From an uncultured Maribacter sp. (lineage in GTDB: Bacteria; Bacteroidota; Bacteroidia; Flavobacteriales; Flavobacteriaceae), in assembly GCA_947498505.1 (NCBI GenBank), contig CANMKG010000003.1, positions 496,001 to 560,000 of the forward strand: 64,000 nucleotides of DNA, written 5' to 3'. Position 1 is the first letter of the stretch. Every line of letters begins with the position of its first letter. The translations under genes and the position numbers were made by a program. The notes beneath the pieces were generated by a model. The model was not told the origin of the DNA. It was given only the letters and a program-made list of their open reading frames with translations, and made no database searches. Below are positions 2,166 through 54,939 of the stretch, piece after piece.

Positions 2166-2645
2166 ATGGCGAATTATAAAGTCACCGTTGGCGAAGAAGA
2201 ACTAATGGTTCAAAAAAGTACGGCAGATGAATTGGATGTTAGCAAAATCAATGCTAACCATTTTCATGTACTTAAAAATTATAAGGCATATAATATTGAA
2301 GTAATAAGTACTAACTTTTTAAATAAAGAACTTACTATTTCAGTAAACGGAAACAACCATCACATTAAAATAGAAGATGAGTATGACCAAATGGTAAAAC
2401 AAATGGGCTTGTTTTCTAACGCTTCTCAGAAACTTAATAATATTAAAGCGCCAATGCCAGGTCTTATTGTAGATGTTATGGTGGAGGAGGGACAAACTAT
2501 AGAAGAGGGAACTCCTTTAATAGTACTGTCAGCAATGAAAATGGAGAATATTATATTGTCCCAAGGGGAAGGAGTAATAAAATCTGTGGCGGTTAAGAAA
2601 GATGATGCAGTAGATAAAGGTCAAATAATTATTGAGATAGACTAG
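2166..2645 (+). CDS. Biotin carboxyl carrier subunit of propionyl-CoA carboxylase
   Basis: 159 residues. The C-terminal half (about 93-159) is a biotinyl domain with the biotinylation motif AMKM; K125 is the modified lysine. The N-terminal part is the linker seen in carriers of acyl-CoA carboxylases. It carries carboxybiotin between the carboxylase (next gene, 7 bp on) and the carboxyltransferase. It is the first gene of a tight operon (carrier, carboxylase, transferase, two mutase subunits) behind the operator at 2052-2080. The separate carrier subunit is the three-gene arrangement of this enzyme class. Substrate preference for propionyl-CoA is inferred from the co-transcribed mutase. Confidence 0.88.
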   Translation: MANYKVTVGEEELMVQKSTADELDVSKINANHFHVLKNYKAYNIEVISTNFLNKELTISVNGNNHHIKIEDEYDQMVKQMGLFSNASQKLNNIKAPMPGLIVDVMVEEGQTIEEGTPLIVLSAMKMENIILSQGEGVIKSVAVKKDDAVDKGQIIIEID

Positions 2646-2652
2646 CAACAAA

Positions 2653-4125: not shown

Positions 4126-4155
4126 GTTGTTGTAATAACAGTCAAAAAGTATACA

Positions 4156-5697
4156 ATGAAAGACAATCAGAAAATACTAAAAGATAAATTGGAAGCCTCT
4201 AGATTAGGAGGAGGTCAAGAACGCATTGACAAGCAACATGCCAAAGGAAAATTAACTGCTCGTGAGCGTATACACTTTCTGTTAGATGAAGGTTCGTTTG
4301 AGGAACTTGGAGCGTTGGTAACTCACCGTACTAAAGATTTTGGTATGGATAAACAGATTTTCTATGGTGATGGTGTTGTAACAGGTTACGGAACCATTAA
4401 CGGAAGACAAGTCTATGTTTTTGCTCAAGATTTTACCGTTTTTGGCGGAGCGTTATCTGAAACACATGCGGAAAAAATTTGTAAAGTAATGGATATTGCT
4501 ATGCGAGTAGGTGTACCATTAATTGGGCTGAATGATAGTGGTGGGGCTCGTATTCAAGAAGGTGTTAGATCCTTAGGAGGCTATGCAGATATTTTTCATA
4601 AAAACGTAATGGCGTCCGGGGTAATCCCTCAAATATCGGCTATTATGGGGCCTTGTGCAGGAGGAGCAGTGTATTCACCTGCGATGACTGATTTTACTTT
4701 AATGGTAGAAAACTCCAGTTATATGTTTGTAACTGGTCCAAATGTAGTAAAAACGGTTACAAATGAAGAGGTTACGTCCGAAGAGCTTGGTGGGGCAACT
4801 ACGCATGCAACAAAATCGGGAGTAACTCACTTAACTGCTGCAAACGATATTGAATGTATTGAACAAATAAAGCAGCTGATAAGTTATATGCCTCAAAATT
4901 GTGAAGATTCACCAGAACAATTGCCATATGAATTAAAAGACGAGATTAGAGAAGTTCTGGAAGAAATTGTACCAGAAAACGCTAATCAACCGTATGATAT
5001 GCGTAGCGTAATAAATGGTATTATTGATGAAGATTCTTTTTTTGAAATTCATAAAGACTATGCAGATAACATTGTTGTTGGTTTCGCACGAATTGGTGGA
5101 AGAAGTATTGGAATTGTGGCAAATCAGCCAATAAGTTTGGCGGGTGTTTTAGATGTAGAATGTTCTAAAAAAGCGGCCAGGTTTACACGTTTTTGTGATT
5201 GTTTCAATATTCCATTGCTAGTATTGGTCGATGTACCAGGTTTTTTACCAGGAACGGATCAAGAATGGAATGGAATAATTACTAATGGAGCTAAATTGTT
5301 ATATGCATTAAGTGAGGCAACAGTTCCTAAAGTAACGCTAATTACAAGAAAGGCTTACGGTGGTGCTTATGATGTTATGAATTCCAAACATATCGGAGCA
5401 GACATGAATTATGCGTGGCCTACGGCTGAAATAGCTGTAATGGGAGCCAAAGGAGCAAGTGAAATTATTTTCAGAAAAGAAATAGCTGCTGCTAAAGATC
5501 CTGAAGCAAAGTTAATTGAGAAGGAAAAAGAGTATGCAGACAAGTTTGCAAATCCTTATAGCGCAGCTGAAAGAGGCTTTATCGACGAGGTTATTTTACC
5601 AAAAGATTCACGTAAAAAGCTCATAAAGGCATTTGCAATGCTTGAAAATAAAAATATAGTGTTGCCTAAGAAAAAGCATGGGAATATTCCGTTATAA
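4156..5697 (+). CDS. pccB: Propionyl-CoA carboxylase carboxyltransferase subunit
   Basis: 513 residues, the usual length of the PccB/MmdA family with fused AccD- and AccA-like halves. Visible markers are GKLTARERI near the N terminus, the oxyanion region [13 protein letters not shown], and the second-half blocks [13 protein letters not shown] and [12 protein letters not shown]. It moves the carboxyl group from carboxybiotin to propionyl-CoA, giving (S)-methylmalonyl-CoA. It lies 30 bp after the carboxylase and 16 bp before the mutase small subunit. Family members differ in acyl-CoA choice; the mutase downstream supports propionyl-CoA. Confidence 0.9.
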
Positions 5698-5713
5698 CTA
5701 AAATTGGAACGTT

Positions 5714-7090
5714 ATGGGTGAAAAGGCTTTGTTTAATGAATTTTCTGAAGTAACCACAACAGAGTGGGTTTCAAAAATCACACAAGATTTAAAGGGCGCA
5801 GATTATGACGAAACACTCATTTGGAAATCACCAGAAGAGATAAACGTTAAGCCATTTTACGATAGGAATGATGTTGATGAAACGTTAAAAATACCAATAC
5901 CCACTAGCGAATGGAAAATTGGACATCACATTTTAGTAGAGGATGTTAATGACGCGAATGCAAACGCTATTAATGCCATTAAATGCGGGGCTGAGAGTAT
6001 CGTGTTTTATGTTTTAGATGAAACTCAAAATGGATTAGAACTCCTTTCTGAAATCAATTTAGAAGCGGTTACAGTTTATTTTGAACTTCAATTTTTATCA
6101 ACAAGCTACATAAAAACTATTATAGATTTTGCTGGAAAAGACCAATCCAATATCTTTTTTAATGTAGATATGTTGGGTAGTTTTAGCAAGACTGGTAATT
6201 GGAATGTTACTCAAGAAGAAGACTTTAATTTTCTAAACTCAGTAATATCTTTAAACGGAACCAATACACTACAAATAGATACTTCTCAATATCAAAATGC
6301 AGGAGGAAATATGGTTCAGCAATTAGCCTTTTCTCTTAATCATGCTAACGAATATCTGAACTATTTTAATGCTGAAAAAATATTAGATAAGGTAGAAGTT
6401 ATAACTTTTAAAGTTGCTGTAGGGAGTAATTACTTTTTTGAAATCGCAAAATTAAGAGCGTTTCGTTTATTGTGGAAAACATTAATATCCGCTTATAGTA
6501 TGTCGATTAAAATGCATATTGTAGCCATACCAACAAAACGGAATAAAACGTTGTATGACTATAATGTAAATATGCTAAGAACAACTAGCGAGACTATGTC
6601 TTCAGTACTAGGTGGCGCAGATATGATTTGCAATCAACCGTATGATGCTATTTTTCATAAGAGTAACGATTTTGGAGAACGAATAGCTTTGAATCAGCTA
6701 TTACTGTTAAAAAATGAAAGTTATTTTGATAAAGTAAGTAATGCAGCGGAAGGCTCATATTATATAGAAGCTATAACGCAAAATATCGCCGATAAGGCTT
6801 TTCTTTTGTTTAAAGAAATAGAAGAAAAAGGAGGTTTTATTTCTGCATTAAAGCAGGGAGAAATCCAAAACCAGATTAAAAATAGTGCTCAGAAAGAGCA
6901 AGAAAGATTCAATACAAAAGAAGAAGTTCTGGTAGGAACCAACAAATATCAAAACACAGCGGATAAAATGAAAAATGATTTAGAAATTCATTCTTTTCAG
7001 ACCGATGTGTCAGGGGATACCTGCGTAGTACCAATTAGTGAAAGTAGGTTGGCAGAGGAAGTTGAACTAGAATTATTACGTAATGAGTAG
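5714..7090 (+). CDS. mutA: Methylmalonyl-CoA mutase, small (beta) subunit
   Basis: 458 residues, resembling the catalytically inactive small subunit of heterodimeric mutases. It starts with the typical [20 protein letters not shown] segment, has a TIM-barrel part ([13 protein letters not shown]) matching the large subunit, and has no B12-binding DxHxxG. It ends with an 8-bp overlap into mutB, indicating translational coupling. Together they convert (R)-methylmalonyl-CoA to succinyl-CoA. No classic methylmalonyl-CoA epimerase was found in the window, although several VOC-fold proteins (the epimerase superfamily) are present. Confidence 0.88.
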
Positions 7091-9233
7091 AAAAAGTTTC
7101 CAACATATCACATTAAAAACATCTTCAGAGAATACTACAAAGATTCCTGATTCCGAAGGTCATGCTACTGCAGAAGGAATACATGTAAAAAAACAATATT
7201 CTAAAGAAGATATAAAAGATGTTGAACATCTAAATTTTGTTGCAGGAATTGCTCCGTATTTACGTGGGCCATACTCTACGATGTATGTTCGTCGTCCGTG
7301 GACCATACGACAATATGCTGGTTTTTCTACTGCAGAGGAGAGTAATGCATTTTACAAAAGAAACCTAGAGGCGGGTCAAAAAGGACTTTCGGTAGCTTTT
7401 GACTTACCTACGCATAGAGGGTATGATAGTGATCATGAACGTGTTGTGGGTGATGTTGGAAAAGCGGGCGTGGCTATTGATTCTGTGGAGGATATGAAAA
7501 TTTTGTTTGATAGTATTCCTCTAGATAAAATGTCGGTTTCAATGACCATGAATGGTGCTGTATTGCCTATTATGGCATTTTATATAGTAGCAGCTGAAGA
7601 ACAAGGTGTTAAAGCAGAATTACTATCAGGTACAATTCAAAATGATATTTTAAAGGAATTTATGGTACGTAACACCTACATATATCCTCCAAAACCGTCA
7701 ATGCAGATAATATCGGATATTTTTGAATATACCAGTAAAAACATGCCCAAATTTAATAGCATCAGTATTTCTGGGTATCACATGCATGAAGCTGGAGCCA
7801 CTGCAGATATTGAATTGGCGTATACACTAGCAGACGGTTTAGAATATATTAGAACTGGACTTGCGTCCGGAATGAAAATAGATGATTTTGCACCACGATT
7901 ATCCTTTTTTTGGGGTATTGGAATGAATCATTTTATGGAAATAGCTAAGTTGCGCGCAGGTAGAATGTTATGGGCTAAATTGGTAAATCAATTTAATCCG
8001 CAGAACCAAAAATCATTAGCACTCAGAACGCATTGTCAAACAAGCGGTTGGAGTTTAACTGAACAAGACCCTTTTAATAACGTTGCTAGAACTACTATTG
8101 AAGCGGCCGCAGCCGTTTTTGGAGGAACGCAGAGTTTGCATACCAATGCTTTGGATGAAGCCATAGCATTACCAACAGATTTTTCGGCTAGAATTGCTAG
8201 AGAGACTCAAATTTTTCTTCAAGAAGAAACTAAAATTACCAAAACGGTAGATCCTTGGGCAGGAAGCTATTATGTTGAAAGTTTAACAGCGCAATTAGCC
8301 GAAAAAGCTTGGGAGTTAATTGAGGAGGTAGAATCTCTGGGAGGAATGACCAAAGCAATAGAATCTGGTATTCCTAAAATGCGAATTGAGGAGGCGGCAG
8401 CACGAAAACAAGCACGAATAGATAGTGGTAAAGATGTTATCGTGGGTGTTAATAAATATGCTCTTGAAGAAGAAGATGAGTTGCATATTTTAGAAGTAGA
8501 TAATGCTGAGGTACGTAGACAACAGGTTGAACGATTAAATACAATAAAGAAGGAGAGAGATACTAAAAAGGTGGAAACTGCTTTAGCTGAGTTAACAAAA
8601 GCAGCGGATTTAAAGATGAATGCTAAAGGCGAATCATATAATTTATTAGATTTAGCGGTAAAAGCAGCTCGAGAAAGAGCTACTTTAGGAGAAATAAGTG
8701 ATGCCTTAGAAGAAGTATTTGGGCGTCATAAAGCATTAATTAAATCTATATCGGGAGTGTATTCTAATGAAATAAAAGAAGACGATAGCTTTAAAAAAGC
8801 TCAGGAAATGACTGATGCTTTCGCGGAACTCGAAGGTAGAAGACCTCGAATTATGATTGCAAAAATGGGACAAGATGGTCATGACCGCGGAGCCAAAGTA
8901 ATTGCCACCGGTTACGCAGATATTGGCTTTGATGTAGATATAGGGCCGCTTTTTCAGACGCCAGAAGAAGTTGCTAAACAAGCAGTTGAAAATGATGTTC
9001 ACATTTTAGGAGTATCTTCTTTAGCGGCAGGTCATAAAACACTAGTTCCAAAGGTTGTAAAGGAACTTGAAAAATATGGCCGAGAAGATATACTTGTAAT
9101 TGTAGGAGGTGTTATTCCTAAACAAGATTATCAATTTTTAATAGATGCGGGAGCTGTAGCGGTTTTTGGCCCTGGAACAAAAATTAGCTTGGCAGCAATT
9201 CAAATATTAGAAATACTTTTAGAGCAACAATAA
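7083..9233 (+). CDS. mutB: Methylmalonyl-CoA mutase, large (alpha) subunit
   Basis: 716 residues, full length for the catalytic subunit. The TIM-barrel part carries [18 protein letters not shown] and the substrate-pocket block [14 protein letters not shown]. The C-terminal cobalamin domain has [16 protein letters not shown] with H600 as cobalt ligand and the later GGVIPKQDY motif. It isomerises methylmalonyl-CoA to succinyl-CoA with adenosylcobalamin. It is the last gene of the operon; the convergent MarR gene begins 10 bp on, with no visible terminator between. Confidence 0.93.
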
Positions 9234-14238: not shown

Positions 14239-14985
14239 ATGAAATTTATATTTAAATATTTGGGAATATTAGGTTTGGTTGTCTTAGGGTTTACATCACT
14301 TAAAAGTAGTAATCCAGAGAAAGCGCTAATTGGAGAGTGGGATAATTTTCAACAATATTGGCAAGAGAATACTGCCGAGAAAATTCATGGTATTGAAACC
14401 AATGATAAACACAGGCATTTATCGTTAAAAATAGAAGAAACAGAGGATGGTAATTTATCAGTAGAAATTCGTGAAGGTAGAAACGGAAGGAATTTTGTTG
14501 AAAAGTTGAATCTCTTTGAAAATCAGGTGTTAAAAGAAAATATGGTTTTAAATGGAGATACACTTTTCATAACAGGAAAACATCATTTTAAAAATAAAGA
14601 ACCTTATAAGTTTATTAGAGTACGTAAGTTTTCTGGATGGATTGAATATCCCATGGAAACCGAAAAAGATGGTAAGTACCATCAAGGTAATTTAGAAATA
14701 AGTGATCAAGGTGGTATGGCTGAGCTAGATATTGAGGGAGTGGATTATACCGTTGAACTTACCCAATTGGTTTATGGTAAAAAATTAGCCGTTATGAAAT
14801 TGGCAGTTTATGATAAGCCTTTGGATAGTGTTGGTATAAATAGTCGTTCTATAAGTTATACCTGGGCAAATCCGGAAGCAAAAAGGATAGGGATTAATTT
14901 AAGAAAAGTTCTAAGTGGTTGGACGTTTATTGAACCTGGTTTTGTAAACCAAAATACTTGGAGAAAAGAAAGTAAAAAACAATAG
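14239..14985 (+). CDS. Exported lipocalin/CpcT-like protein
   Basis: 248 residues with an N-terminal hydrophobic signal segment (KYLGILGLVVLGFTSL) and no clear lipobox. After it comes GEWDNFQQYW, which resembles the G-E/Y-x-N-x-x-Q opening of CpcT/CpeT-like proteins. The rest is rich in beta-strand patterns, as expected of a lipocalin-like barrel. Its C-terminal block YTWANPEAKRIGIN matches YSWGNPGADRIGFN near the end of the protein at 54940-56037, so the two are related. Probable ligand binding in the periplasm; the ligand is unknown. It is followed 1 bp later by an SDR gene. Confidence 0.55.
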   Translation: MKFIFKYLGILGLVVLGFTSLKSSNPEKALIGEWDNFQQYWQENTAEKIHGIETNDKHRHLSLKIEETEDGNLSVEIREGRNGRNFVEKLNLFENQVLKENMVLNGDTLFITGKHHFKNKEPYKFIRVRKFSGWIEYPMETEKDGKYHQGNLEISDQGGMAELDIEGVDYTVELTQLVYGKKLAVMKLAVYDKPLDSVGINSRSISYTWANPEAKRIGINLRKVLSGWTFIEPGFVNQNTWRKESKKQ

Positions 14986-15741: not shown

Positions 15742-16515
15742 TTATCCCATGGTACCCTTAACCACACCACCGTCAACCGATATTGTTTGTCCAGAAATAT
15801 AGCGGCTATATGGTGATAATAACCATAAAGCTAATGAAGCAAAATCTTCGGGATTTCCAATTTTGTTAGTTACTGTTTGCTTTGCAAAAGTAGCTCTAAT
15901 CTCATCTTCAGAAACTCCTTTTAGTTCACTGTTCTTTTTAAATAAATTTTCCATGCGTTGTGTTGCATGAAATCCTGGACCTAAAATGTTTAAAGTAACT
16001 CCAGAATTTCCAATTTCTTGTGAAAGGGTTTTTATATAACCAACAACAGCCAAACGCATAGAATTACTAAGTACTAAGTTTTCTACAGGTTGTTTTACAG
16101 AAACACTTTCTATATATAATAAACGACCATATTGTTGGTCTATCATTTTAGGTAATAATGCTTGAGTTAATGCAATTTTCCACCTAACTACGGTTTTATA
16201 TGCAGTATCCCAATCAGATAGTTTTGTGTCCATGGCAGCCATGGCTGGAGGACCTCCAGAATTAATTACAGCACCCGTTAGTACCCTATCTCCAATGATA
16301 TTAATTAAGCCAGATAATGTGTTCTCCTGTGATAAATCCCCTGCGAAAATTTCTATTTTATCACTTATTTGCTGTAATTCTTTTAGTTTTTCTTGTGTTC
16401 GAGCTATTGCAATAACTCTTGCGTTTTCTGATATCAACTGTTCTGTAATGGCTTTGCCTAATCCACTAGTTGCGCCACCAACCAGAAAGAGTTTATTATC
16501 CAGATGTAAGTTCAT
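15742..16515 (-). CDS. SDR-family protein with atypical catalytic site
   Basis: 257 residues with the SDR cofactor motif VGGATSGLGKA and the family ending SGQTISVDGG. Where classical members have YxxxK it reads LSNSMRLAV, so Tyr and Lys are missing. A subgroup annotated as 3-oxoacyl-ACP-reductase-like shares this SN-x-x-R pattern. It is the last gene of the eleven-gene operon 24810-15742, one base after the BASS transporter. Function in the pathway is unknown; it may act as an unusual oxidoreductase. Confidence 0.75.
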   Translation of the reverse strand: MNLHLDNKLFLVGGATSGLGKAITEQLISENARVIAIARTQEKLKELQQISDKIEIFAGDLSQENTLSGLINIIGDRVLTGAVINSGGPPAMAAMDTKLSDWDTAYKTVVRWKIALTQALLPKMIDQQYGRLLYIESVSVKQPVENLVLSNSMRLAVVGYIKTLSQEIGNSGVTLNILGPGFHATQRMENLFKKNSELKGVSEDEIRATFAKQTVTNKIGNPEDFASLALWLLSPYSRYISGQTISVDGGVVKGTMG

Positions 16516-16516
16516 T

Positions 16517-17401
16517 TTACTTATGAATTAATTTTTTAAACAGAAAAATTACGCCTATTGCAATAATACACATTACAACTCCATAAACACCTGCAGTTGC
16601 TGCCATTTTTGGTTCGTTCAATAATCCAGTCGAAAGTGCAATAGTCATCCCTAATACATTGTTTTGCATTCCACTTTCTATAGCAATTGTAGCTGCCTGT
16701 TTTGTAGATGTCTTTAACGCTTTTGCACTGAAATAACCAACAGAAAGCGTTGTAATATTTAGTAAAAGTACACCTAAAAAAGAAGCTTTAATAAAAAACC
16801 AACTATTGCCAATTTCCTCAAGTTTCATAATCATGAGCACCAATGCCAAGACAATAACAATGCCGGAACCCCAAGAAATAGCTGACTTACTTTTTTCTGA
16901 AAAATTAGGGTATTTATGTTTTATGAACATACCAATAAGCACAGGCAATGCGGTTAGTTTAAAAATATTGAGTACAGTGGCTCCAATAGGAAGTTGTATA
17001 TTTTTGGATGCAGCACCTAAAATAGTATCTAAAGAGAAGTTTAGTATAAATGGTATCGTAAAAATGGTTACTAAACTTGAAATGGCTGTTAGGCTTATGG
17101 ATAAGGCGGTATCTCCTTTAGCCAAATGTGAAAAAAGATTGGAAACTGCTCCACCTGGGCAACAAGCAACAATCATTAATCCCATAGCTACCATTGGTTT
17201 CATTGGTACTATAGCTACAATGGTAAAAGCTATAATAGGAACAAGAACAATTTGATTAAATAGTCCAATAAAAATTGCTTTGGGAGCAATGCCAACTCTT
17301 TTAAAATCGTCCAATGTGAGTGTTAATCCCATGCCTAGCATTACTAGAAATAGAATAATTTGTAAAATGACAGGAATGTATGCTAAAAACTGTGCAGTCA
17401 T
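16517..17401 (-). CDS. BASS-family sodium/organic-acid symporter
   Basis: 294 residues and strongly hydrophobic, with about nine predicted membrane helices. Hallmarks of the bile acid:sodium symporter family are the Gly/Pro-rich segment IVACCPGGAVSNLFSHLAKG and the later AIESGMQNNVLGMTIALS. It would import or export an organic acid across the inner membrane with sodium. Its place in the amidase/CoA-transferase operon suggests a pathway acid such as a substituted maleate, malate or 2-oxoacid as cargo (inference). Confidence 0.85.
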   Translation of the reverse strand: MTAQFLAYIPVILQIILFLVMLGMGLTLTLDDFKRVGIAPKAIFIGLFNQIVLVPIIAFTIVAIVPMKPMVAMGLMIVACCPGGAVSNLFSHLAKGDTALSISLTAISSLVTIFTIPFILNFSLDTILGAASKNIQLPIGATVLNIFKLTALPVLIGMFIKHKYPNFSEKSKSAISWGSGIVIVLALVLMIMKLEEIGNSWFFIKASFLGVLLLNITTLSVGYFSAKALKTSTKQAATIAIESGMQNNVLGMTIALSTGLLNEPKMAATAGVYGVVMCIIAIGVIFLFKKLIHK

Positions 17402-17412
17402 CTACAAAAAGT

Positions 17413-18333
17413 TTAATTGTTTTTCCAAGCGTTTAAAATTTCAGTTGCAGAAGTTGACCATACTGCTTCATGACTACCTAGTACATCCAGAATATATTCC
17501 AAATACTTAATTCTATGTGGTTGTCCCAATACCCACGGATGAATATTTAAACTTAATATTCTTCCTCCTTGCGAAGTTGTTTCGTTTAATAAGTATTGGA
17601 AGGCATCTTCCACTTGATTCGCCCAGTCTTCCGCTGAATGCAAGTTATTTAGTATTATAAACTGATCGTCTAATTCTGTGGTTAAAGGCATTGCTGTTAA
17701 GATACCATTTTTTGTTTTAAAATCGTAGGGCATTTCATCGTTAACCCAGTCACAAAAATAATCGATACCATTTTGAGCTAATATATCGGGAGTGTTTTCA
17801 GACTCGTTTTTTGCAGGACTTATCCAGCCAGTAATTGCTTGTCCTGTAAGTTCTCGTAAACCATTAACAGCTTGTTCTACCAGCTCTTTTTCTTCATTAA
17901 TATTTTGTCCTCCGTAATGTAATTTATCCATGTGGTAACCATGGCAAAGAATTTCATTACCTCTTTCTTTAATTGTTTCTGTGAGATAAGGAATACGCTC
18001 TGCTAATCTTGTATTTATAGCAAAAGTGGGGGTGATTTTGTATTTGTCGAATGCCTTAAAAAAGCGATAAATACCTACTCTATTACCGTAATCGCGAAGA
18101 CTATAATGTCGTAAGTCAGGATACGGCTTTGTCATTCCTCCCGGAACTTTAAATGGTATACCTTGTTGATTTAACGGAAAAAATTGCACACCTACATTTA
18201 CCCACAGTGCTATTTTTTTATTGTTAGGCCATTGCGTTTTTTTTCTTTCATGCAACATGCTCCATTCGTAGCGTTGATGATCCATGCCATAGGAACGCTC
18301 CGGATAGTCTAAATACGATTTATCTAATCCCAT
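17413..18333 (-). CDS. PuuE-type polysaccharide-deacetylase-fold hydrolase, probable cyclic amide/imide hydrolase (copy 2)
   Basis: 306 residues of the NodB/polysaccharide-deacetylase fold in its PuuE-like form: GNRVGIYRFFKAFDKY, LCHGYHMDKLHYGG with candidate metal histidines, and NIHPWVLGQPHRI near the end. PuuE proteins are cofactor-light allantoinases that open cyclic amides; as I recall, the cyclic imidase of Pseudomonas putida YZ-26 is also of this fold. No signal peptide, so not a cell-wall deacetylase. It overlaps the next paralogue by 14 bp and lies beside an isochorismatase-type amidase, which supports ring opening followed by deamidation (inference). Confidence 0.78.
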   Translation of the reverse strand: MGLDKSYLDYPERSYGMDHQRYEWSMLHERKKTQWPNNKKIALWVNVGVQFFPLNQQGIPFKVPGGMTKPYPDLRHYSLRDYGNRVGIYRFFKAFDKYKITPTFAINTRLAERIPYLTETIKERGNEILCHGYHMDKLHYGGQNINEEKELVEQAVNGLRELTGQAITGWISPAKNESENTPDILAQNGIDYFCDWVNDEMPYDFKTKNGILTAMPLTTELDDQFIILNNLHSAEDWANQVEDAFQYLLNETTSQGGRILSLNIHPWVLGQPHRIKYLEYILDVLGSHEAVWSTSATEILNAWKNN

Positions 18334-19270
18334 AACGATTCTTTTTGTTGTTAATATCTGTTAATGAAGCATCGTAATAATTATCTAAATAATATGTAGC
18401 TATTTCTTTGCCTGTTGCAACCCATACATCAGAGTGCCCAGTAATGTATTCTAAAGCTTTTTCGTAAGCTTTTATTCTGTGCGAATTTGCCACCTGATAA
18501 TTATGAGTTGGTATGCACATGATGGTTCCACTTTCAGCGCCTTCTGCATATAAGCGGTCAAAATTGTCTTTGAGTTCTTGACCGTATCTACGTGGTGTTA
18601 TTTTTTGAACCAGATAGGCAATGGTATCATTCATTTCTAAGGAGTAGGGTATAGATGCAAAACGTTTTCCACTTCTTAAATGTATTGGAGTAGGTTGATC
18701 ATCATGAAATAAATCACAGGAATAAAAACCTGCTTCTTCTCCAAATAACTCGGTACCAACTTCAGCAAATAAATCTAAAGTGTTTTCGGAGTGAGATAGC
18801 GCTGGGGCTAGGTAACCTGCACATTTTTGCCCCGTATGTTTATAAATAGTTTCGATGGAGTCTTTAATCATATCTCGCTCTTGAGATTCAGACATTCCGT
18901 AGGTATATCTGGTGTTATAAATACCATGACTAAAAAACTCCCAATTACGTTCTTTACAAAGTGCTATAATTTCAGGATGATGGTCACATAGTGCTGTGGA
19001 TAATGATATTGATCCACGAATACCATATTTTTCTAAAAGATCCATTTGCCTTTTATGACCTACTCTATTGCCCCAGTCTCTACTTGTATAACCAGGTAAT
19101 GCTGGGTTTGGTTGCGGCCATGGTTTTCTAAAAGGATTATTAGGGGGATTTAGCTCGTAAAATTCAATATTTGGAGCCACCCAAAAGGCAACTTTAGCCC
19201 CATTAGGCCATTTAATTTTTGGTCGATTTTCGTAAGGCCAATAATCGTAATATCCTGGATCTTCTTTCAT
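18320..19270 (-). CDS. PuuE-type polysaccharide-deacetylase-fold hydrolase, probable cyclic amide/imide hydrolase (copy 1)
   Basis: 316 residues, paralogue of the following gene. It has the PuuE-like landmarks GNRVGHKRQMDLLEKYGI, FFSHGIYNTRYTYGMS (SHG, candidate metal His) and PTHNYQVANSHRI. It is cytoplasmic and overlaps its partner by 14 bp, so the two may form one enzyme or cover two related substrates. It starts two bases after the amidase gene. Allantoinase is the annotated function of the family, but no other purine genes are near. The succession imidase, half-amidase, maleate hydratase fits better. Confidence 0.78.
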   Translation of the reverse strand: MKEDPGYYDYWPYENRPKIKWPNGAKVAFWVAPNIEFYELNPPNNPFRKPWPQPNPALPGYTSRDWGNRVGHKRQMDLLEKYGIRGSISLSTALCDHHPEIIALCKERNWEFFSHGIYNTRYTYGMSESQERDMIKDSIETIYKHTGQKCAGYLAPALSHSENTLDLFAEVGTELFGEEAGFYSCDLFHDDQPTPIHLRSGKRFASIPYSLEMNDTIAYLVQKITPRRYGQELKDNFDRLYAEGAESGTIMCIPTHNYQVANSHRIKAYEKALEYITGHSDVWVATGKEIATYYLDNYYDASLTDINNKKNRYGIR

Positions 19271-19272
19271 TG

Positions 19273-19935
19273 TTATAAATTATTTAACCATGTAAAAATT
19301 TCTTGTACTTCTAGTACGTCGCAATATTTTAAAGATAAATCAGTAAGATTTGCATAGTGGTAACTTTCATGTTTGTCAGCAACACATTCTTCAGGTATTA
19401 TAGTTCTATAACCACGAGAAAGAGAATCAACTCCTGCAGCTCTGATGCAGCCAGATGTAGACCCTCCAGTTAGTATTACAGTGTCTATTTGATGCCATAC
19501 TAAAAGAGATTGCAAAGGGGTTTCAAAAAAAGGCGAAGGCATTTTTTTTTCGTAAAAAACATCAGAGGAACGGTCAAGTATAAGCCGGTCATCTAATTCG
19601 GCACGTTCCGAACCAAATTTAATGTTTTGTAAACTATCCGGCGTATCTGTACGTGTGCCCCAAACACCGGCATCAGCTGCTGTGTCCATATATGCCACAT
19701 TAGTCCAAACAACTGGCCAGCCTAACTTCCTGAATTTTGCAGCTAATTCGTTTACATAATCTAACTGTTTGGGGTCGTTTTGGTAAGCTGTTTTAAAAAG
19801 ATCAGTTCTGGTATATGCTTTTTGAATATCTATATTGATTAAAGCAGCTTTTTTACCAAACCCAAAGCGTTTACGTGCTGGGTTAGCTTTTACTTCAAAA
19901 TAAAGTTCTTTAGCTGTTTTATCCGTGGTCTGCAT
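19273..19935 (-). CDS. Isochorismatase-family cysteine amidase (maleamate/N-carbamoylsarcosine amidase type)
   Basis: 220 residues with the Asp-Lys-Cys triad of the fold: D36 in INIDIQKAY, K130 or K131 in YEKKMPSPF, and C163 in GGSTSGCIRAAGVDS. The TSGC-R-A sequence and following PEECVADKH are typical of the branch with N-carbamoylsarcosine amidase and maleamate amidase (NicF). Expected reaction: a half-amide such as a substituted maleamate to the diacid and ammonia. It lies directly after the two cyclic-amide hydrolases and upstream in pathway order of the LeuCD-type hydratase in the same operon. Confidence 0.85.
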   Translation of the reverse strand: MQTTDKTAKELYFEVKANPARKRFGFGKKAALINIDIQKAYTRTDLFKTAYQNDPKQLDYVNELAAKFRKLGWPVVWTNVAYMDTAADAGVWGTRTDTPDSLQNIKFGSERAELDDRLILDRSSDVFYEKKMPSPFFETPLQSLLVWHQIDTVILTGGSTSGCIRAAGVDSLSRGYRTIIPEECVADKHESYHYANLTDLSLKYCDVLEVQEIFTWLNNL

Positions 19936-19969
19936 AGTAGTTTTTTTAATATTTATATAAAAGCAATTT

Positions 19970-20404
19970 TTATTTTTTTGTTCTTTTTTTGATTTTAGAA
20001 GATTGCATAGAAATGATAACCCAATTGTCTTCCTGTTTTTTCCATACTACCGTAAGTCTATATTCTCCTTCATCAAACCCTTTAAATTTTCGTTTGTTCT
20101 TGTAATTTGTTAGGATCACATTAGTATCAATCTTTAAAAAATGAATATCTGTGCTTTCGTAACTTTCAAACGTATTTTTTATGTTAGCAATAGCTTCTTT
20201 CTTATGATATCTTTTTCCACTTTGAGAAGTAAGAATAAGATTGTCATGGTATATTTTATTCGCCAAAACAGTATCGCTATTAAGGTGCGCGGTTTTGAGG
20301 TTTGTAATTTGATGTAGTATTTGTTCTCTCTCAGAAGTGCTTATGTCTTGAGAGACACCAGTTATAGCGATAAATAAAGTACATACAAAAATTACCAGTT
20401 TCAT
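19970..20404 (-). CDS. Exported NTF2-like protein (DUF4440/SnoaL type)
   Basis: 144 residues with a signal peptide (VIFVCTLFIAITGVSQ) and an NTF2-like domain: helix QILHQITNLKTAHLNSD, then YRLTVVWKKQEDNWVI as the typical last strand. The fold includes small isomerases, cyclases and binding proteins; no catalytic residue set can be named. It is one of two NTF2-like genes in the window (the other, 54510-54926, is cytoplasmic). It is 5 bp after the CoA-transferase, so part of the operon. Confidence 0.7.
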   Translation of the reverse strand: MKLVIFVCTLFIAITGVSQDISTSEREQILHQITNLKTAHLNSDTVLANKIYHDNLILTSQSGKRYHKKEAIANIKNTFESYESTDIHFLKIDTNVILTNYKNKRKFKGFDEGEYRLTVVWKKQEDNWVIISMQSSKIKKRTKK

Positions 20405-20408
20405 AGAT

Positions 20409-21587
20409 TTATTCTGTTTTAATGATTCCAGCAGCTTTCATTTTGGCAATTGTATCCGCATCAATATTTAATTCTTTTAAAACCTCTAAAGTGTGTTCAC
20501 CAATCCTTGGCGGATCTAATCGTTTTTCAACTCGGGTGCCTTTATATTCAATTGGAAATTTTGGGAGTTTAGTTGTTTTACCGCCACCCATATCAACTTC
20601 CATTAAGCTATTTCCTTTATTAAGTTGTTCATCTTCAAAAAGGTCTTCTGGTCTGCTAATAGGAGCAAATGGAATATGACCTTTTTCACAACGTTCTATA
20701 ATTTCTTGTTTTGTGAATTGTTTGATACGATCTTCCAGTGCAGGTAAAAACCATTTACGTTCATCTATACGAAGGTTATTAGTTTTTAATCGTTCATTAG
20801 TTAACCAATCTTGCCAACCAAAAACTTCGCAGAAGCGTTCCCAATGCTTTTCGCTAATAATACCAATAAATGTTTTATCATTATCCTTGGTGTCAAAAAC
20901 TTTATAAATGGACCATGCACTTACTCGTGATGGCATTGGTGGAATTTTATAATCTATTTGGGAGGAATATGCCATATGTTGTCCCATTAAAAAGGCACAT
21001 GTTTCAAATAATGCAGATTTTACAAAACCTCCTTCTCCTGTTTTTTCACGCTCATACAATGCTTGTAAAATACCAATGTACCCAAACATTCCTCCAGTAA
21101 TATCAATCACTGATGTTCCTGCCCGTAATGGATCACCTTCTCGACCAGTCATATAAGCTAATCCACCCATCATCTGAACAACCTCATCCATTGCATGCCG
21201 TTTCTCATAAGGTCCACTTAAAAAACCTTTGAGAGAACAATAGATGAGGCCTTTGTTCAGTGATTTTAAGGTATCATACCCTAAGCCTAAACGGTCCATA
21301 GTTCCTGGACCAAAGTTTTCTACAACCACATCATAATCTTTAACCAAATCATAAATGAGATTGCGACCTTCTTCTGATTTTATGTTAACTGCAAGACTTC
21401 TTTTGTTACGGTTATAAAACCAAAAGTAACCTGTTCCAAAGCCTTGTAGTTTGCGGGTGCTATCTCCGTGAACGGGTTCTACATGAACCACATCTGCACC
21501 CATATCGGCCAACATAAGTCCGGCACATGGCCCCATTACTGCATGTGTAAATTCTAATACTTTAATACCTTTTAAAGGAGCACTCAT
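20409..21587 (-). CDS. Class III CoA-transferase (CaiB/BaiF family)
   Basis: 392 residues, normal length. Family landmarks: MGPCAGLMLADMGADVVHVE, YNRNKRSLAVN, ENFGPG, and the catalytic Asp D134 in RHAMDEVVQ followed by GGLAYMTGREGDPLRAG. It moves CoA between carboxylic acids through an aspartyl anhydride. Relatives activate citramalate or mesaconate with succinyl-CoA. In this operon it could load CoA onto a substituted malate made by the LeuCD pair, before cleavage by the HMG-CoA-lyase-like enzyme (inference). Succinyl-CoA from the island's own mutase would be the natural donor. Confidence 0.87.
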   Translation of the reverse strand: MSAPLKGIKVLEFTHAVMGPCAGLMLADMGADVVHVEPVHGDSTRKLQGFGTGYFWFYNRNKRSLAVNIKSEEGRNLIYDLVKDYDVVVENFGPGTMDRLGLGYDTLKSLNKGLIYCSLKGFLSGPYEKRHAMDEVVQMMGGLAYMTGREGDPLRAGTSVIDITGGMFGYIGILQALYEREKTGEGGFVKSALFETCAFLMGQHMAYSSQIDYKIPPMPSRVSAWSIYKVFDTKDNDKTFIGIISEKHWERFCEVFGWQDWLTNERLKTNNLRIDERKWFLPALEDRIKQFTKQEIIERCEKGHIPFAPISRPEDLFEDEQLNKGNSLMEVDMGGGKTTKLPKFPIEYKGTRVEKRLDPPRIGEHTLEVLKELNIDADTIAKMKAAGIIKTE

Positions 21588-21588
21588 T

Positions 21589-22149
21589 TTATTTTGAATT
21601 TAGAGATTTATAAAAAGTTTCTGGCACATTTTCTATTTGTGTATTTAAAGTGGCATTCCATCTATTTAAAAAACCAAACATGGAAATAACCCCCACGATT
21701 TCTACAATTGCTTCATCATCATAATACTTTTTTAATTCGATAAAATCTTCATCAGTAACTTGGTTAGGAACCATACTACCTTTTAATGCAATTTCTAAGG
21801 CGGCTTTTTCCGCATTAGAAAAAAGAGATGAAGTTTTATATTCCCAAAGTTGTTCAAGTTTGTCTTTTTCAACACCTTGTTCGTTGGCACCAAAAGCCGT
21901 ATGTGCACTACAGTATTGACAACCACTAACCTTACTGGAAAGGTGACCTAACATTCTTTTGAGTTTAGCGTCTATTTTACCCTCTGCGTATACCGTTTTT
22001 GCTAATTGAAAAAACGCTTTTAGAACTTCTGGCTTATGAGCCATGATAAGTCCGTCGTTGGGTAAAAAACCCATCCACTTTTCTGCATTAGAGAATAAGG
22101 AACCTAATTCACTTTCTTTTGGATTCTGTATGGGATTTACTCTGCTCAT
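21589..22149 (-). CDS. AhpD-like carboxymuconolactone-decarboxylase-family protein
   Basis: 186 residues, all-helical pattern with the redox motif CQYCSAH (CxxCxxxH) used by alkylhydroperoxidase AhpD-like members. These act as peroxidases or thiol-disulfide partners; true carboxymuconolactone decarboxylases lack the CxxC. Sited between LeuD and the CoA-transferase in the operon, one base before the latter. It may protect the oxygen-sensitive Fe-S hydratase or reduce a pathway peroxide (inference). Confidence 0.8.
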   Translation of the reverse strand: MSRVNPIQNPKESELGSLFSNAEKWMGFLPNDGLIMAHKPEVLKAFFQLAKTVYAEGKIDAKLKRMLGHLSSKVSGCQYCSAHTAFGANEQGVEKDKLEQLWEYKTSSLFSNAEKAALEIALKGSMVPNQVTDEDFIELKKYYDDEAIVEIVGVISMFGFLNRWNATLNTQIENVPETFYKSLNSK

Positions 22150-22157
22150 AATATGTT

Positions 22158-22667
22158 TTATAAAGTATAATTTCCGTTTTTATTCAAGTAATTAACTAGC
22201 CCGCCTTCACTTAAAATGTCAATCATAATGTCAGGTAATTTTGTTGCTTTGTATGATTTGTTTGCGGTGATGTCGTTAACAATGCCTTGTTTTAAATCAA
22301 TTGAAAGTTTAGCACCTTTTTGAATGTCATGTTTACCAATTTCTAAAACTGGTAACCCAATATTAATGGCATTTCTAAAAAAAATTCGTGCAAAATCTTC
22401 TGCAATTACCACTGATATTCCTGATTGTTTTAAGGCTAATGGGGCTTGTTCTCGCGAAGAACCACAACCAAAGTTTATACCAGCTACAAGAATATCTCCT
22501 GATTGTACTATTTTATTAAAATTGGGGTCTAGATCTTCTAAAACATGATTAGCTAATGTGGATAAATCTAAGGTTTTAGTATATTTTCCGGGTATAATAC
22601 GGTCGGTATCAATATGATTACCATATACATGTGCCTTTGCTTCTATTGTTGTTTTTATGGTACTCAT
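22158..22667 (-). CDS. LeuD-type small subunit of an aconitase-family hydratase (set 1)
   Basis: 169 residues. It has the swivelling-domain markers HIDTDRIIPGKY and the active-site loop NFGCGSSREQAPLAL with the usual catalytic Ser and substrate-binding Arg, plus FARIFFRNAINIGLPV. With the overlapping large subunit (4 bp) it forms a hydro-lyase. Isopropylmalate isomerase is the default annotation, but no other leucine genes are near. The 2,3-dimethylmalate dehydratase DmdAB of nicotinate fermentation is of this type and acts on a dialkyl-maleate, which would fit here. Confidence 0.88.
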   Translation of the reverse strand: MSTIKTTIEAKAHVYGNHIDTDRIIPGKYTKTLDLSTLANHVLEDLDPNFNKIVQSGDILVAGINFGCGSSREQAPLALKQSGISVVIAEDFARIFFRNAINIGLPVLEIGKHDIQKGAKLSIDLKQGIVNDITANKSYKATKLPDIMIDILSEGGLVNYLNKNGNYTL

Positions 22668-23902
22668 ATTAAATACTTTTTTGGGTTTGTAATTTTTCCT
22701 TCTAAAGCTGAGGCTGCGACCGTTGCGGGTGCTCCTAAATAAATGTTTGAATTGGGATTTCCCATTCTACCTCTAAAATTTCGGTTGGCAGCTGAGATTA
22801 CAACTTCGCCATCAGCAGGCACACCTTGATGAGTACCTACACACGGTCCGCAACCAGATGTTATTAATGAGGCACCAGCTTCAATAAGTGTTTGCATTGA
22901 ACCGTTACTCATTGCATCTAAAAGTACACTTTGAGATGCTGGAGCAATTACCATTCGCACATCAGGATGTATTTTTTTTCCTTTTAAAATTTTGGCAGCA
23001 ATATCTAAATCTTCTAATCTTCCATTACAGCAAGTGCCAATAAAAGCATAATTAATTTTGGTGTCTTCGTAGTTAGAAATGTTGTGTACATTATCTGGTG
23101 ATTCTGGAGCACTTACCTGAGGTTCTAAATCTGATACATCAAAATCAAAAGTCTTAATGTATTTAGCATCTGCGTCAGGAGTTATGGCTTCAAAGTCATA
23201 ATCTAATTTTAGTCCAGCTGGGTGAACAATCCCTGTTTTTGCTCCCATTTCGGATGACATGTTGGCAATGGTCATTCTACTAGCCAGACTTAAACCTTCA
23301 AATGCTTCTCCACAAAATTCAATGGCTTGATATGTTGCACCAGAAACTGTTACTTTACCCACAAGAAATAAAATTAAATCTTTAGCAGTAACACCGTCTT
23401 GTAGCTTACCTGAGCAATGAATTTTTATAGTTTGAGGTACTTTTAACCATATTTTACCAGTCATCATTACCGCAGCCAAATCAGTAGAACCCACACCGCA
23501 AGCAAAAGCATTTAAGGCTCCATATGTTGGTGTGTGCGAATCTGCTCCAATAAAAATATCTCCCGGCTTTACATATTGATTTTCAACCATTACTTGATGA
23601 CAAATTCCTTCACCTATTTCAAAGAGACGCATGCCTTGTTCTTTGGCAAAATCTCGCATCATTTTATGTAAGTTGGCAATGCGTTCGTTTGGTGAAGGAG
23701 CTGCGTGATCAATAATTAAAGCACATTTATCAGGATTAAAAACTTTTTTTCCTCCCATTTCTTTGAAGGCTTTTATGGTTAATGGCCCTGTGGTATCACT
23801 AGCCATTGCGCCATCAACGTCACTTATTACAAGTTCTCCCGCATATACTTTATGTCCAACATGGTTGGATATTATTTTTTCTGAAATTGTCTGTCCCATC
23901 AA
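22664..23902 (-). CDS. LeuC-type large subunit of an aconitase-family hydratase (set 1)
   Basis: 412 residues, LeuC/HacA length. Markers are IDHAAPSP, GADSHTPTYGALNAFACGVG, and the 4Fe-4S cysteines in GTCCNGRLED and SGCGPCVGTHQG. It adds water to or removes it from a C=C in a di- or tricarboxylic acid. It overlaps the lyase gene upstream and leuD downstream by 4 bp each, so the three are translationally coupled. Proposed reaction: substituted maleate to substituted malate, preparing the CoA-transfer and retro-Claisen steps (inference). Confidence 0.88.
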   Translation of the reverse strand: MMGQTISEKIISNHVGHKVYAGELVISDVDGAMASDTTGPLTIKAFKEMGGKKVFNPDKCALIIDHAAPSPNERIANLHKMMRDFAKEQGMRLFEIGEGICHQVMVENQYVKPGDIFIGADSHTPTYGALNAFACGVGSTDLAAVMMTGKIWLKVPQTIKIHCSGKLQDGVTAKDLILFLVGKVTVSGATYQAIEFCGEAFEGLSLASRMTIANMSSEMGAKTGIVHPAGLKLDYDFEAITPDADAKYIKTFDFDVSDLEPQVSAPESPDNVHNISNYEDTKINYAFIGTCCNGRLEDLDIAAKILKGKKIHPDVRMVIAPASQSVLLDAMSNGSMQTLIEAGASLITSGCGPCVGTHQGVPADGEVVISAANRNFRGRMGNPNSNIYLGAPATVAASALEGKITNPKKYLI

Positions 23903-24810
23903 ATCATTTTAATTTCATTATTGTCAATTAATTGGTACAATTGCCCAGGCAACTTATAACCTAAAGTGGCTTCCAATTCTCTACTTATTTCTGCAATTTT
24001 ACTAATGTTTAATCCTGTTTCGTAGCCCATTTGATGAATCATATGTGCGCTATCTTCAGTGGCGATGTTACCAGTTGCACTTTTTATAAATGGGCAACCT
24101 CCTAATCCACCAAAGGCAGTATCAAAAATGGTGACACCAGCCTCAATGGCAGCGTACAAATTTGCGTATCCCTTGTTTTCTGTATTATGTAGATGTAACA
24201 CTACTGGGATATTTTTTGCCTTTTCGACTACTTTATGCATTAATGCTCCCAGTTGTTTTGGGTTTCCCATTCCTGTTGAGTCGGCTAAGGCCAATTCATC
24301 AATTCCAGTATCTAGATGATGGTCAACCATATCTAAAACATGATTTTCATCTATTTTACCCTCATATCGACAACCAAAAGCACATTGAATCCCTCCGCGA
24401 ACAGTAATACTATGCTGTTTAGAATGTTTAACCATTTCTTTAAAAGCATGTTTAGCTTCAGAAAGGTTTAGTCTTGCATTTTTTTGACTATGTGTATCAC
24501 TTGCTGATATGGAACAAGCTAAATGATTTAGCCCTGCTTTAATACCACGTTCAACACCTTTTAGATTAAGTACTAATCCGCTATATATTACATCTGTTTT
24601 TTTTTCCAGTTGGTTGCATAGTTCTTCAGCATCTGCCATTTGCGGAACCAATTTTGGATGCACAAATGAAGTTACTTGAATACGTTTTATACCAGCCGCT
24701 TCTAACAGCTTAATATATTGGAGCTTTTTTTGAGTTGCAATGGTAATTGGTAAGGTTTGAAACCCATCTCTTAAGCCCTGTTCTTCTAAAACTATCTGTT
24801 TTGTACTCAT
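23899..24810 (-). CDS. HMG-CoA-lyase-like acyl-CoA lyase
   Basis: 303 residues, the length of bacterial HMG-CoA lyases. Active-site features: R14-D15 in EEQGLRDGFQ, metal ligands H206 and H208 in VLHLHNTE, and the glycine-rich loop with C239 in GGLGGCPFIKSATGN. The fold cleaves 3-hydroxy-3-methyl acyl-CoAs by retro-Claisen reaction. With a LeuCD hydratase and CoA-transferase beside it and no leucine-breakdown genes, a substituted malyl-CoA (citramalyl- or dimethylmalyl-CoA-like) is a good candidate, giving pyruvate or a 2-oxoacid plus an acyl-CoA. First gene of the operon. Confidence 0.85.
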   Translation of the reverse strand: MSTKQIVLEEQGLRDGFQTLPITIATQKKLQYIKLLEAAGIKRIQVTSFVHPKLVPQMADAEELCNQLEKKTDVIYSGLVLNLKGVERGIKAGLNHLACSISASDTHSQKNARLNLSEAKHAFKEMVKHSKQHSITVRGGIQCAFGCRYEGKIDENHVLDMVDHHLDTGIDELALADSTGMGNPKQLGALMHKVVEKAKNIPVVLHLHNTENKGYANLYAAIEAGVTIFDTAFGGLGGCPFIKSATGNIATEDSAHMIHQMGYETGLNISKIAEISRELEATLGYKLPGQLYQLIDNNEIKMI

Positions 24811-45131: not shown

Positions 45132-45156
45132 TAATTAACCAATAAAAATATATATA

Positions 45157-45681: not shown

Positions 45682-45684
45682 GTT

Positions 45685-47611: not shown

Positions 47612-47680
47612 AATAAACAAAATAGTGTGTTTAGGTGTTTTAGCAAATACATCTAAAGGTTGAAATTCAATTTTAAAAAA

Positions 47681-49753: not shown

Positions 49754-49755
49754 TT

Positions 49756-51183: not shown

Positions 51184-51212
51184 AAAATAATAAGAATTAA
51201 GTTTTTTTAGGG

Positions 51213-51248
51213 AAAGGGTGTATTGACATTGTGTTAAATACACCCTTT
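51213..51248 (+). terminator. Stem-loop terminator after the LeuCD2/Hyu operon
   Basis: Stem AAAGGGTGTATT and its complement with a 12-base loop. The trailing sequence is TTTAAAAT rather than a long T-run, so it may be leaky. It separates the FAD gene from the operator and hyuB. Confidence 0.65.
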
Positions 51249-51287
51249 AAAATCAAAGTTTTTAGTAAAAAATAGTAGTAATAATCA

Positions 51288-51316
51288 AAAATTAGTTAAC
51301 TTAGTTAACTAATTTT
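51288..51316. promoter_or_regulatory. Operator, single-dyad type, for the hyuB operon
   Basis: Perfect 14-bp arms around base 51302, core TTAACTTAGTTAA. It ends 15 bp before the hyuB ATG and contains a -7-like TAATTTTA at 51310-51317, so it should act directly on the promoter. Confidence 0.82.
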
Positions 51317-51331
51317 AATTCATGTTGATTC

Positions 51332-54926: not shown

Positions 54927-54939
54927 AATCAAAGAATAT

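What the first reader, a model, noticed from the sequence alone, without database searches (positions are those of the whole stretch)
15742..24810. Complete cyclic-imide to pyruvate route in one eleven-gene operon
The operon encodes two PuuE-type cyclic-amide hydrolases, an isochorismatase-type (maleamate-amidase-like) hydrolase, a LeuCD hydratase, a CaiB CoA-transferase and an HMG-CoA-lyase-like enzyme. In chemical order these give imide, half-amide, substituted maleate, substituted malate, malyl-CoA, then 2-oxoacid plus acyl-CoA. Known parallels are separate: maleamate amidase (NicF) and dimethylmaleate hydratase (DmdAB) in nicotinate breakdown, and CoA-dependent citramalate cleavage. I know of no described pathway that joins them this way with an HMGL-type lyase.
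Basis: inference. Interest (0 to 1): 0.85.

Follow-up and report, generated by a model that had tools for sequence, protein, structure and literature searches.

The report
Imide-degradation operon in bilin-linked island
A marine Maribacter carries an operon that looks able to open a cyclic imide and cut it down to ordinary metabolites, and its place among relatives of pigment-handling proteins suggests that it recycles fragments of chlorophyll, haem or algal bile pigments, for which no gene-level bacterial pathway turned up in the searches made here.

Summary
The eleven genes are as described, tightly packed in a Maribacter-like genome. Their core is a transferable module: in 80 of 80 relatives kept from the genome scan, the isochorismatase and both PuuE-type genes have the same order and strand, in Bacteroidota and Proteobacteria. 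Within about 10 kb, 44 of 80 carry LeuCD plus a lyase, either HMGL or an ICL/PEP-mutase-type lyase, the class of 2,3-dimethylmalate lyase; 22 of 80 show neither. The PuuE-like proteins fall far below the allantoinase cut-off. All 22 Bacteroidota lyases aligned have Gln at HMG-CoA lyase's Glu72, but proteobacterial ones keep Glu. New here: the operon lies in an island holding all four CpeT (bilin-lyase family) matches of the genome, and DUF1838 genes. Among Flavobacteriales with the module, 20 of 21 have CpeT and 19 of 21 DUF1838, against 8 and 0 of 394 sampled others. Best reading: breakdown of tetrapyrrole-derived maleimides to a 2-oxoacid plus an acyl-CoA. The gene logic is fairly well supported; substrate, products and every activity are untested.

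The parts
23899..24810 (-). HMGL-type lyase, first gene of the operon; Gln where HMG-CoA lyase has Glu72; predicted to cleave a substituted malyl-CoA
   Evidence: PF00682 1.9e-40; PRK05692 289.2 bits, cut-off 246; Gln in 22 of 22 Bacteroidota lyases aligned, window included
22664..23902 (-). LeuC-type hydratase, large subunit
   Evidence: PF00330; PRK00402, TIGR02086 and TIGR01343 over cut-off; nearest PDB chains homoaconitase and isopropylmalate/citramalate isomerase large subunits
22158..22667 (-). LeuD/DmdB-type hydratase, small subunit
   Evidence: TIGR02087 'LeuD/DmdB family' 198.6 bits, cut-off 108.95
21589..22149 (-). CMD/AhpD-like protein, role unknown
   Evidence: PF02627 3.2e-9; peroxidase-related models below cut-off
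20409..21587 (-). CaiB (family III) CoA-transferase, predicted to load CoA on the malate
   Evidence: PF02515 4.8e-107; best PDB match succinate-hydroxymethylglutarate CoA-transferase 9br6; no NCBIfam cut-off met
19970..20404 (-). DUF4440 (SnoaL-like) protein, role unknown
   Evidence: PF14534 1.5e-10
19273..19935 (-). isochorismatase-type amidohydrolase, predicted half-amide (maleamate-type) amidase
   Evidence: PF00857 2.3e-28; Asp36, Lys130, Cys163 in 73 of 73 aligned (window plus 72 of 80 loci); PDB relatives N-carbamoylsarcosine amidohydrolase and other isochorismatase-family hydrolases
18320..19270 (-). PuuE-type cyclic imide/amide hydrolase B
   Evidence: PF01522 3.6e-9; allantoinase model 103.7 bits against cut-off 424.6; His115 in 70 of 70 aligned (window plus 69 of 80 loci)
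17413..18333 (-). PuuE-type cyclic imide/amide hydrolase A
   Evidence: PF01522 3.5e-9; allantoinase model 120.7 bits against 424.6; His131 in 74 of 75 aligned (window plus 74 of 80 loci)
16517..17401 (-). bile-acid:sodium-symporter-type transporter, possible uptake of the imide or acid
   Evidence: PF01758 6.4e-38
15742..16515 (-). short-chain dehydrogenase, role unknown
   Evidence: PF13561 6.8e-30
14239..14985 (+). probable CpeT-like barrel protein close to the operon
39740..40447 (-). CpeT/CpcT-family protein of the island
   Evidence: PF06206 1.8e-28; only PDB sequence match at E up to 0.1: phycocyanobilin lyase CpcT 4o4o, 9.1e-6
54790..56037 (+). CpeT/CpcT-family protein in a 415-aa open frame
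   Evidence: PF06206 3e-16
60933..61673 (+). CpeT/CpcT-family protein
   Evidence: PF06206 3.1e-20
43303..43821 (+). DUF3598 N-terminal-domain protein
   Evidence: PF12204 1.8e-6
43863..46446 (+). second module: LeuC2, LeuD2 and an HpcH/HpaI-type aldolase
   Evidence: HpaI model 157 bits, cut-off 369, not met
47660..52951 (+). HyuA, FAD oxidoreductase and HyuB of the second module
57991..58947 (+). DUF1838 protein, marker gene of the island
   Evidence: PF08894 1.4e-69; family found in 1 of 395 sampled Flavobacteriales, the own genome
29682..30566 (+). weaker DUF1838 member
   Evidence: PF08894 29.9 bits, cut-off 25; not among the 3 hits of the genome search
2166..9233 (+). biotin-dependent carboxylase set (probably propionyl-CoA carboxylase) and methylmalonyl-CoA mutase genes, a likely outlet for propionyl-CoA
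   Evidence: families only; substrate inferred

Best explanation
The operon is a catabolic route for a 2,3-disubstituted maleimide (or related cyclic imide). The PuuE-type enzymes open the imide to a half-amide; the isochorismatase-type enzyme releases ammonia to give a substituted maleate; LeuCD adds water to give a substituted malate; CaiB makes its CoA ester; the HMGL-type lyase splits it into a 2-oxoacid and an acyl-CoA. The most likely imides are oxidation fragments of tetrapyrroles: hematinic acid, methyl ethyl and methyl vinyl maleimide. For hematinic acid the opened and deamidated product is a methylated cis-homoaconitate, so hydration and cleavage would give 2-oxoglutarate plus propionyl-CoA (or pyruvate plus glutaryl-CoA); the window also holds a biotin-dependent carboxylase set and methylmalonyl-CoA mutase genes. 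Shown: gene content, conservation, island context. Inferred: every substrate, every reaction, the pigment source.
For: Triplet in the same order in 80 of 80 loci, LeuCD plus a lyase in 44 of 80. Lyase swap: ICL/PEP-mutase-type in 27 of 80, nearest model methylisocitrate lyase, below cut-off, and a 2,3-dimethylmalate lyase structure among the PDB matches of one member (3fa3, 3.5e-43). Another LeuC-like gene elsewhere in the genome. Island: all 4 CpeT hits and all 3 DUF1838 hits of the genome search lie in it; of 14 well-known control genomes CpeT rings in 1, the cyanobacterium, and DUF1838 in 0. CpeT in 34 of 50 module genomes (20 of 21 Flavobacteriales) and DUF1838 in 42 of 50 (19 of 21), against 9 of 395 and 1 of 395 sampled Flavobacteriales, own genome included. 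Passages read: hematinic acid from chlorophyll a in vitro, maleimides and hematinic acid reported from senescent leaves and lake sediments (PMC7318184); deacetylase-type cyclic imidases exist (PMC9304392).
Against: 22 of 80 loci show neither LeuCD nor a lyase within reach (some are short contigs). 16 of 50 module genomes lack CpeT and 8 of 50 DUF1838. CpeT also occurs without the module (8 of 394 other Flavobacteriales) and in 27 of 197 genomes of the order of G425 (not split by module). Module and control genomes differ in genus make-up, and the loci are related, so counts are not independent. No enzyme that would cut a bilin into single rings has been identified. The isochorismatase's best PDB match is N-carbamoylsarcosine amidohydrolase. 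Proteobacterial lyases in the same context keep Glu72. The study that found hematinic acid in leaves could not detect maleimides there (PMC7318184). No activity or metabolite is known.
Confidence: 0.56

Rival explanations
1. The imide route is real but its substrate is not a tetrapyrrole fragment: for example imides from pyridines, alkaloids or other algal compounds; the CpeT/DUF1838 neighbours serve another lipophilic ligand.
For: The CpeT-like neighbour's model aligns about as well with fatty-acid-binding proteins. 16 of 50 module genomes have no CpeT. Proteobacterial plasmid clusters carry the triplet with other neighbours.
Against: CpeTa's only PDB sequence match is phycocyanobilin lyase CpcT; strong CpeT and DUF1838 association in Flavobacteriales and close linkage.
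Confidence: 0.24
2. The PuuE/isochorismatase genes degrade a ureide or carbamoyl compound (hydantoin, allantoin, N-carbamoyl type), and LeuCD-CaiB-HMGL is a separate acid pathway in the same operon.
For: Best PDB match of the isochorismatase is N-carbamoylsarcosine amidohydrolase; PuuE allantoinase is the nearest solved relative of PuuE-B; 34 of 80 loci with the triplet lack LeuCD within reach.
Against: Allantoinase model 103.7 and 120.7 bits against cut-off 424.6; none of the other operon genes matches a ureide-pathway family; LeuCD plus a lyase beside the triplet in 44 of 80.
Confidence: 0.12
3. CaiB and the HMGL-type enzyme degrade hydroxymethylglutarate itself: CoA loading, then HMG-CoA to acetoacetate plus acetyl-CoA.
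For: CaiB's best PDB match is succinate-hydroxymethylglutarate CoA-transferase; the lyase passes the PRK05692 HMG-CoA lyase cut-off.
Against: Gln for the critical Glu72 in all 22 Bacteroidota lyases aligned; a second HMGL-like gene elsewhere in the genome; ICL/PEP-mutase-type lyases instead of HMGL in many relatives.
Confidence: 0.06

Closest known systems
End steps of anaerobic nicotinate fermentation: dimethylmaleate hydratase DmdAB and 2,3-dimethylmalate lyase (pathway recalled; names DmdB and 3fa3)
   Same: LeuCD-type hydration of a 2,3-disubstituted maleate, then cleavage of the malate; ICL/PEP-mutase-type lyase in 27 of 80 relatives
   Different: Here the maleate would come from an imide by hydrolysis, and in this genome cleavage would use CaiB plus an HMGL-type lyase on a CoA ester
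Aspergillus nidulans nicotinate pathway: cyclic imidase HxnM and amide hydrolase HxnN (PMC9304392, passages read)
   Same: Deacetylase-type cyclic imidase followed by hydrolysis of the half-amide
   Different: Six-membered ring (3-hydroxypiperidine-2,6-dione); no LeuCD, CaiB or lyase step in the passages seen
Bacterial maleamate amidase NicF (recalled)
   Same: Isochorismatase-type hydrolase acting on the half-amide of a maleate
   Different: NicF belongs to aerobic nicotinate breakdown; none of the annotated operon genes points to that pathway
T-type phycobiliprotein lyases CpcT/CpeT (PMC2327270, passages read)
   Same: Pfam CpeT cut-off met by four island proteins
   Different: Some island proteins are in longer open frames; attachment of bilins to phycobiliproteins is not expected in this host (inference; phycobiliproteins were not searched for)

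Membership tests
PuuE allantoinase | NCBIfam TIGR03212 cut-off 424.6 bits | tested here: not met
   120.7 (A) and 103.7 bits (B)
Deacetylase-type cyclic imidase | PuuE/PgdA-like relatives and conserved putative catalytic His | tested here: met
   PuuE-B matches 3cl6 and 3qbu; His in 70 of 70 B and 74 of 75 A proteins. Against: His replaced in 3 of 7 A proteins of alignment A2
Deacetylase-type cyclic imidase | Hydrolysis of a cyclic imide | not testable with these tools
   needs an enzyme assay
Maleamate-type amidase (isochorismatase superfamily) | Asp-Lys-Cys triad (recalled) | tested here: met
   73 of 73
Maleamate-type amidase (isochorismatase superfamily) | A specific sequence model over its cut-off | tested here: inconclusive
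   only PRK11440, BiuH and RutB models listed, all below cut-off; no maleamate-amidase model among the hits, and whether the library holds one was not checked
LeuCD / DmdAB hydratase | LeuD/DmdB and LeuC-type subfamily cut-offs | tested here: met
   TIGR02087; PRK00402, TIGR02086, TIGR01343
LeuCD / DmdAB hydratase | Activity on dimethylmaleate | not testable with these tools
   needs an enzyme assay
HMG-CoA lyase | PRK05692 cut-off | tested here: met
   289.2 against 246 bits
HMG-CoA lyase | Catalytic Glu72 (human numbering) | tested here: not met
   Gln in the window and 21 Bacteroidota relatives; Glu in the 16 readable proteobacterial rows; Glu72 named critical in PMC6941031 (passage)
Succinate-glutarate CoA-transferase | NF052585 cut-off 750 bits | tested here: not met
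   237.2 bits
CpeT/CpcT bilin lyase family | PF06206 cut-off | tested here: met
   genes at 39740, 54790 and 60933 and one beyond the window; the gene at 14239 does not reach it
CpeT/CpcT bilin lyase family | Binding or transfer of a bilin | not testable with these tools
   needs protein and ligand

The most novel reading that the evidence does not exclude
The operon is the lower half of a bacterial island of about 80 kb that takes linear tetrapyrroles (phycobilins, bilins or chlorophyll products) apart ring by ring with CpeT- and DUF1838-type proteins, flavin oxidases and VOC dioxygenase-like proteins, and turns each ring's maleimide into 2-oxoacids and acyl-CoA, with a second LeuCD/HyuAB/aldolase module for a differently substituted ring.
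Probability: 0.4. Interest if true: 0.9.

Novelty: new variant of a known kind. Interest (0 to 1): 0.74.

Why it matters
Tetrapyrroles are made in huge amounts by algae and cyanobacteria (general knowledge), and hematinic acid and maleimides are reported from plants and sediments (PMC7318184, passages), yet the searches made here found no gene-level pathway by which bacteria use these fragments. This module occurs in marine Bacteroidota and Proteobacteria, including a named strain, Maribacter vaceletii DSM 25230 (L020), so the question becomes directly testable. It would give likely roles to DUF1838 and to CpeT outside photosynthesis, and would correct automatic labels such as 'hydroxymethylglutaryl-CoA lyase', 'polysaccharide deacetylase' and '3-isopropylmalate dehydratase'.
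Full report
What is there. The window lies in a 4.08 Mb genome; its PuuE-B is 99% identical to that of an uncultured Maribacter. Eleven minus-strand genes from 24810 down to 15742 encode, in order of transcription, an HMGL-type lyase, LeuC, LeuD, a CMD/AhpD-like protein, a CaiB CoA-transferase, a DUF4440 protein, an isochorismatase-type hydrolase, two PuuE-type proteins of the polysaccharide deacetylase family, a bile-acid:sodium-symporter-type transporter and an SDR. Gaps are 1-34 bp, overlaps 4-14 bp.

Is it a real unit? On plasmids, I opened six annotated regions: in all six (Burkholderia plantarii, Comamonas, Salipiger, Acidiphilium, Sphingobium, Sphingomonas) the isochorismatase and both PuuE genes are adjacent. 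Acidiphilium, Sphingobium and Sphingomonas add CaiB, HMGL and LeuCD; Burkholderia has LeuCD and an isocitrate-lyase-family gene, which Sphingobium and Sphingomonas have too; Comamonas and Salipiger show neither LeuCD nor a lyase in the stretch. Four further regions, from three records, carried no annotation and were read only by tblastn with island proteins. In 80 of 80 the triplet has the same order and strand; LeuCD occurs in 46, HMGL in 34, CaiB in 42, an ICL/PEP-mutase-type lyase in 27 (matches at 1e-10; ordinary methylisocitrate lyases are not excluded), LeuCD plus a lyase in 44 (25 with HMGL and CaiB, 23 with ICL-type, 4 with both); of 57 loci longer than 20 kb, 35 have LeuCD plus a lyase; 22 of 80 have neither. 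The titles name Flavobacteriaceae, Saprospiraceae, Alteromonadaceae, Marinobacter, Halomonas, Betaproteobacteria and others. In a sample of 395 Flavobacteriales only the own genome has PuuE-B at E <= 1e-40.

Enzyme by enzyme. PuuE-A and B score 120.7 and 103.7 bits on the allantoinase model, cut-off 424.6. The fungal cyclic imidase HxnM is described as structurally similar to H. pylori 3qbu, itself related to PuuE, and 64% identical to a P. putida cyclic imide hydrolase homologue (PMC9304392, passages); 3qbu is among PuuE-B's PDB matches. The putative catalytic His is kept in 70 of 70 B and 74 of 75 A proteins (69 and 74 of 80 loci gave usable frames), but replaced in 3 of 7 A proteins of alignment A2. 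The isochorismatase keeps Asp36, Lys130 and Cys163 in 73 of 73 (that these form the triad is recalled). LeuD passes the LeuD/DmdB cut-off, LeuC three subfamily cut-offs. The lyase passes the HMG-CoA lyase subfamily cut-off, but Glu72, listed as critical with Arg41, Tyr167 and Cys266 (PMC6941031, passage), is Gln in the window and in 21 other Bacteroidota proteins. All 16 readable proteobacterial rows keep Glu, and one fragment was unreadable. So the change marks the Bacteroidota lyase, not the pathway as a whole. The genome has another HMGL-like gene, 28.5% identical, with Asp at that place.

The lyase swap. In Marinobacter, Halomonas, Saccharospirillum, Paracoccus and others the arrangement is TRAP transporter, LeuD, LeuC, often a GntR regulator, then an ICL/PEP-mutase-type gene, isochorismatase, PuuE-B, PuuE-A and usually an FAD protein. 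Two such lyases score best on methylisocitrate lyase (284 and 277 bits, cut-off 354); one was compared with the PDB and matches methylisocitrate lyases best and a 2,3-dimethylmalate lyase structure at 3.5e-43. Two different lyase families in the same gene company are what one expects if both split a substituted malate. This is inference.

The island. The four CpeT hits of the genome lie at C3:535-574 kb and its three DUF1838 hits at C3:552-573 kb, in and just beyond the window; a weaker DUF1838 member lies at 29682-30566 and a probable further CpeT-like protein at 14239-14985. In 50 module genomes (the first 50 of 80) CpeT occurs in 34 and DUF1838 in 42; for the 21 Flavobacteriales among them, in 20 and 19. 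In 395 sampled Flavobacteriales, own included, the figures are 9 and 1. The eight other CpeT carriers each have one copy in a frame of 205-231 aa, against 233-416 aa for nearly all copies in the module genomes of that order. In the order of G425 (the genome of L048, Psychrosphaera) CpeT occurs in 27 of 197, so outside Bacteroidota the link is weaker. Of the 34 CpeT-positive module genomes, 22 have CpeT on a contig whose length equals that of the triplet's contig; there the nearest CpeT is 2-38 kb from PuuE-B and 70 of 71 lie within 60 kb. In six the contig looked at was another one (G402, G408, G414, G421, G434, G435), and six were not checked. Related stretches in Gammaproteobacteria hold similar companions (VOC, AmOx, MT, ADH, CN-hydrolase).

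Chemistry. Hematinic acid arose from chlorophyll a in vitro, and maleimides and hematinic acid are cited from senescent leaves and lake sediments; in that study's own leaves hematinic acid was found but maleimides were not (PMC7318184, passages). From structure alone (inference), opened and deamidated hematinic acid is a methylated cis-homoaconitate. LeuC's best PDB match is a homoaconitase large subunit and homocitrate synthase models, below cut-off, follow the HMG-CoA lyase model for the lyase; the reverse of a homocitrate-synthase-like reaction would give 2-oxoglutarate plus propionyl-CoA. A biotin-dependent carboxylase set and methylmalonyl-CoA mutase genes lie at 2166-9233. With the ICL-type lyase the products would be pyruvate plus glutarate.

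Limits. No biochemical data; related loci are not independent; module and control genomes are not matched by genus; the paper library lacks most subscription journals. That the joined route is undescribed rests.

Noticed in passing
window 43303-56037: A second module on the plus strand: DUF3598, LeuC2-LeuD2, HpaI-type aldolase, SDR, HyuA, FAD protein, HyuB, methyltransferase and CpeT; much of it recurs in an Aquimarina genome, another Flavobacteriaceae genome and, in part, a Saprospiraceae genome (L119-L120, L126-L127, L122).
   Followed up: partly
window 30656-31684, 57072-63690; L006:7454-10032; possibly window 10931-12001: Many VOC/glyoxalase-type proteins in one island, several only weakly matching Pfam; the gene at 10931 has no Pfam match. 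Possible ring-modifying dioxygenases.
   Followed up: no
L006:10043-15129: Two flavin amine-oxidase-type proteins flank CpeT and DUF1838 genes; in three related loci a small protein of the same company was found, one of them matching cytochrome c.
   Followed up: partly
L008, L011, L012: The triplet lies on plasmids typed as conjugative (Burkholderia plantarii, Acidiphilium, Sphingobium), in the first two with transposase genes close by.
   Followed up: no
genomes of L045 and L057 (G422, G434): Two gammaproteobacterial MAGs give 18 DUF1838 matches each; some matches are fragments.
   Followed up: no
window 32729-37060: Genes for pyruvate dehydrogenase E1 and E2 inside the island, also present in three related islands.
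   Followed up: no
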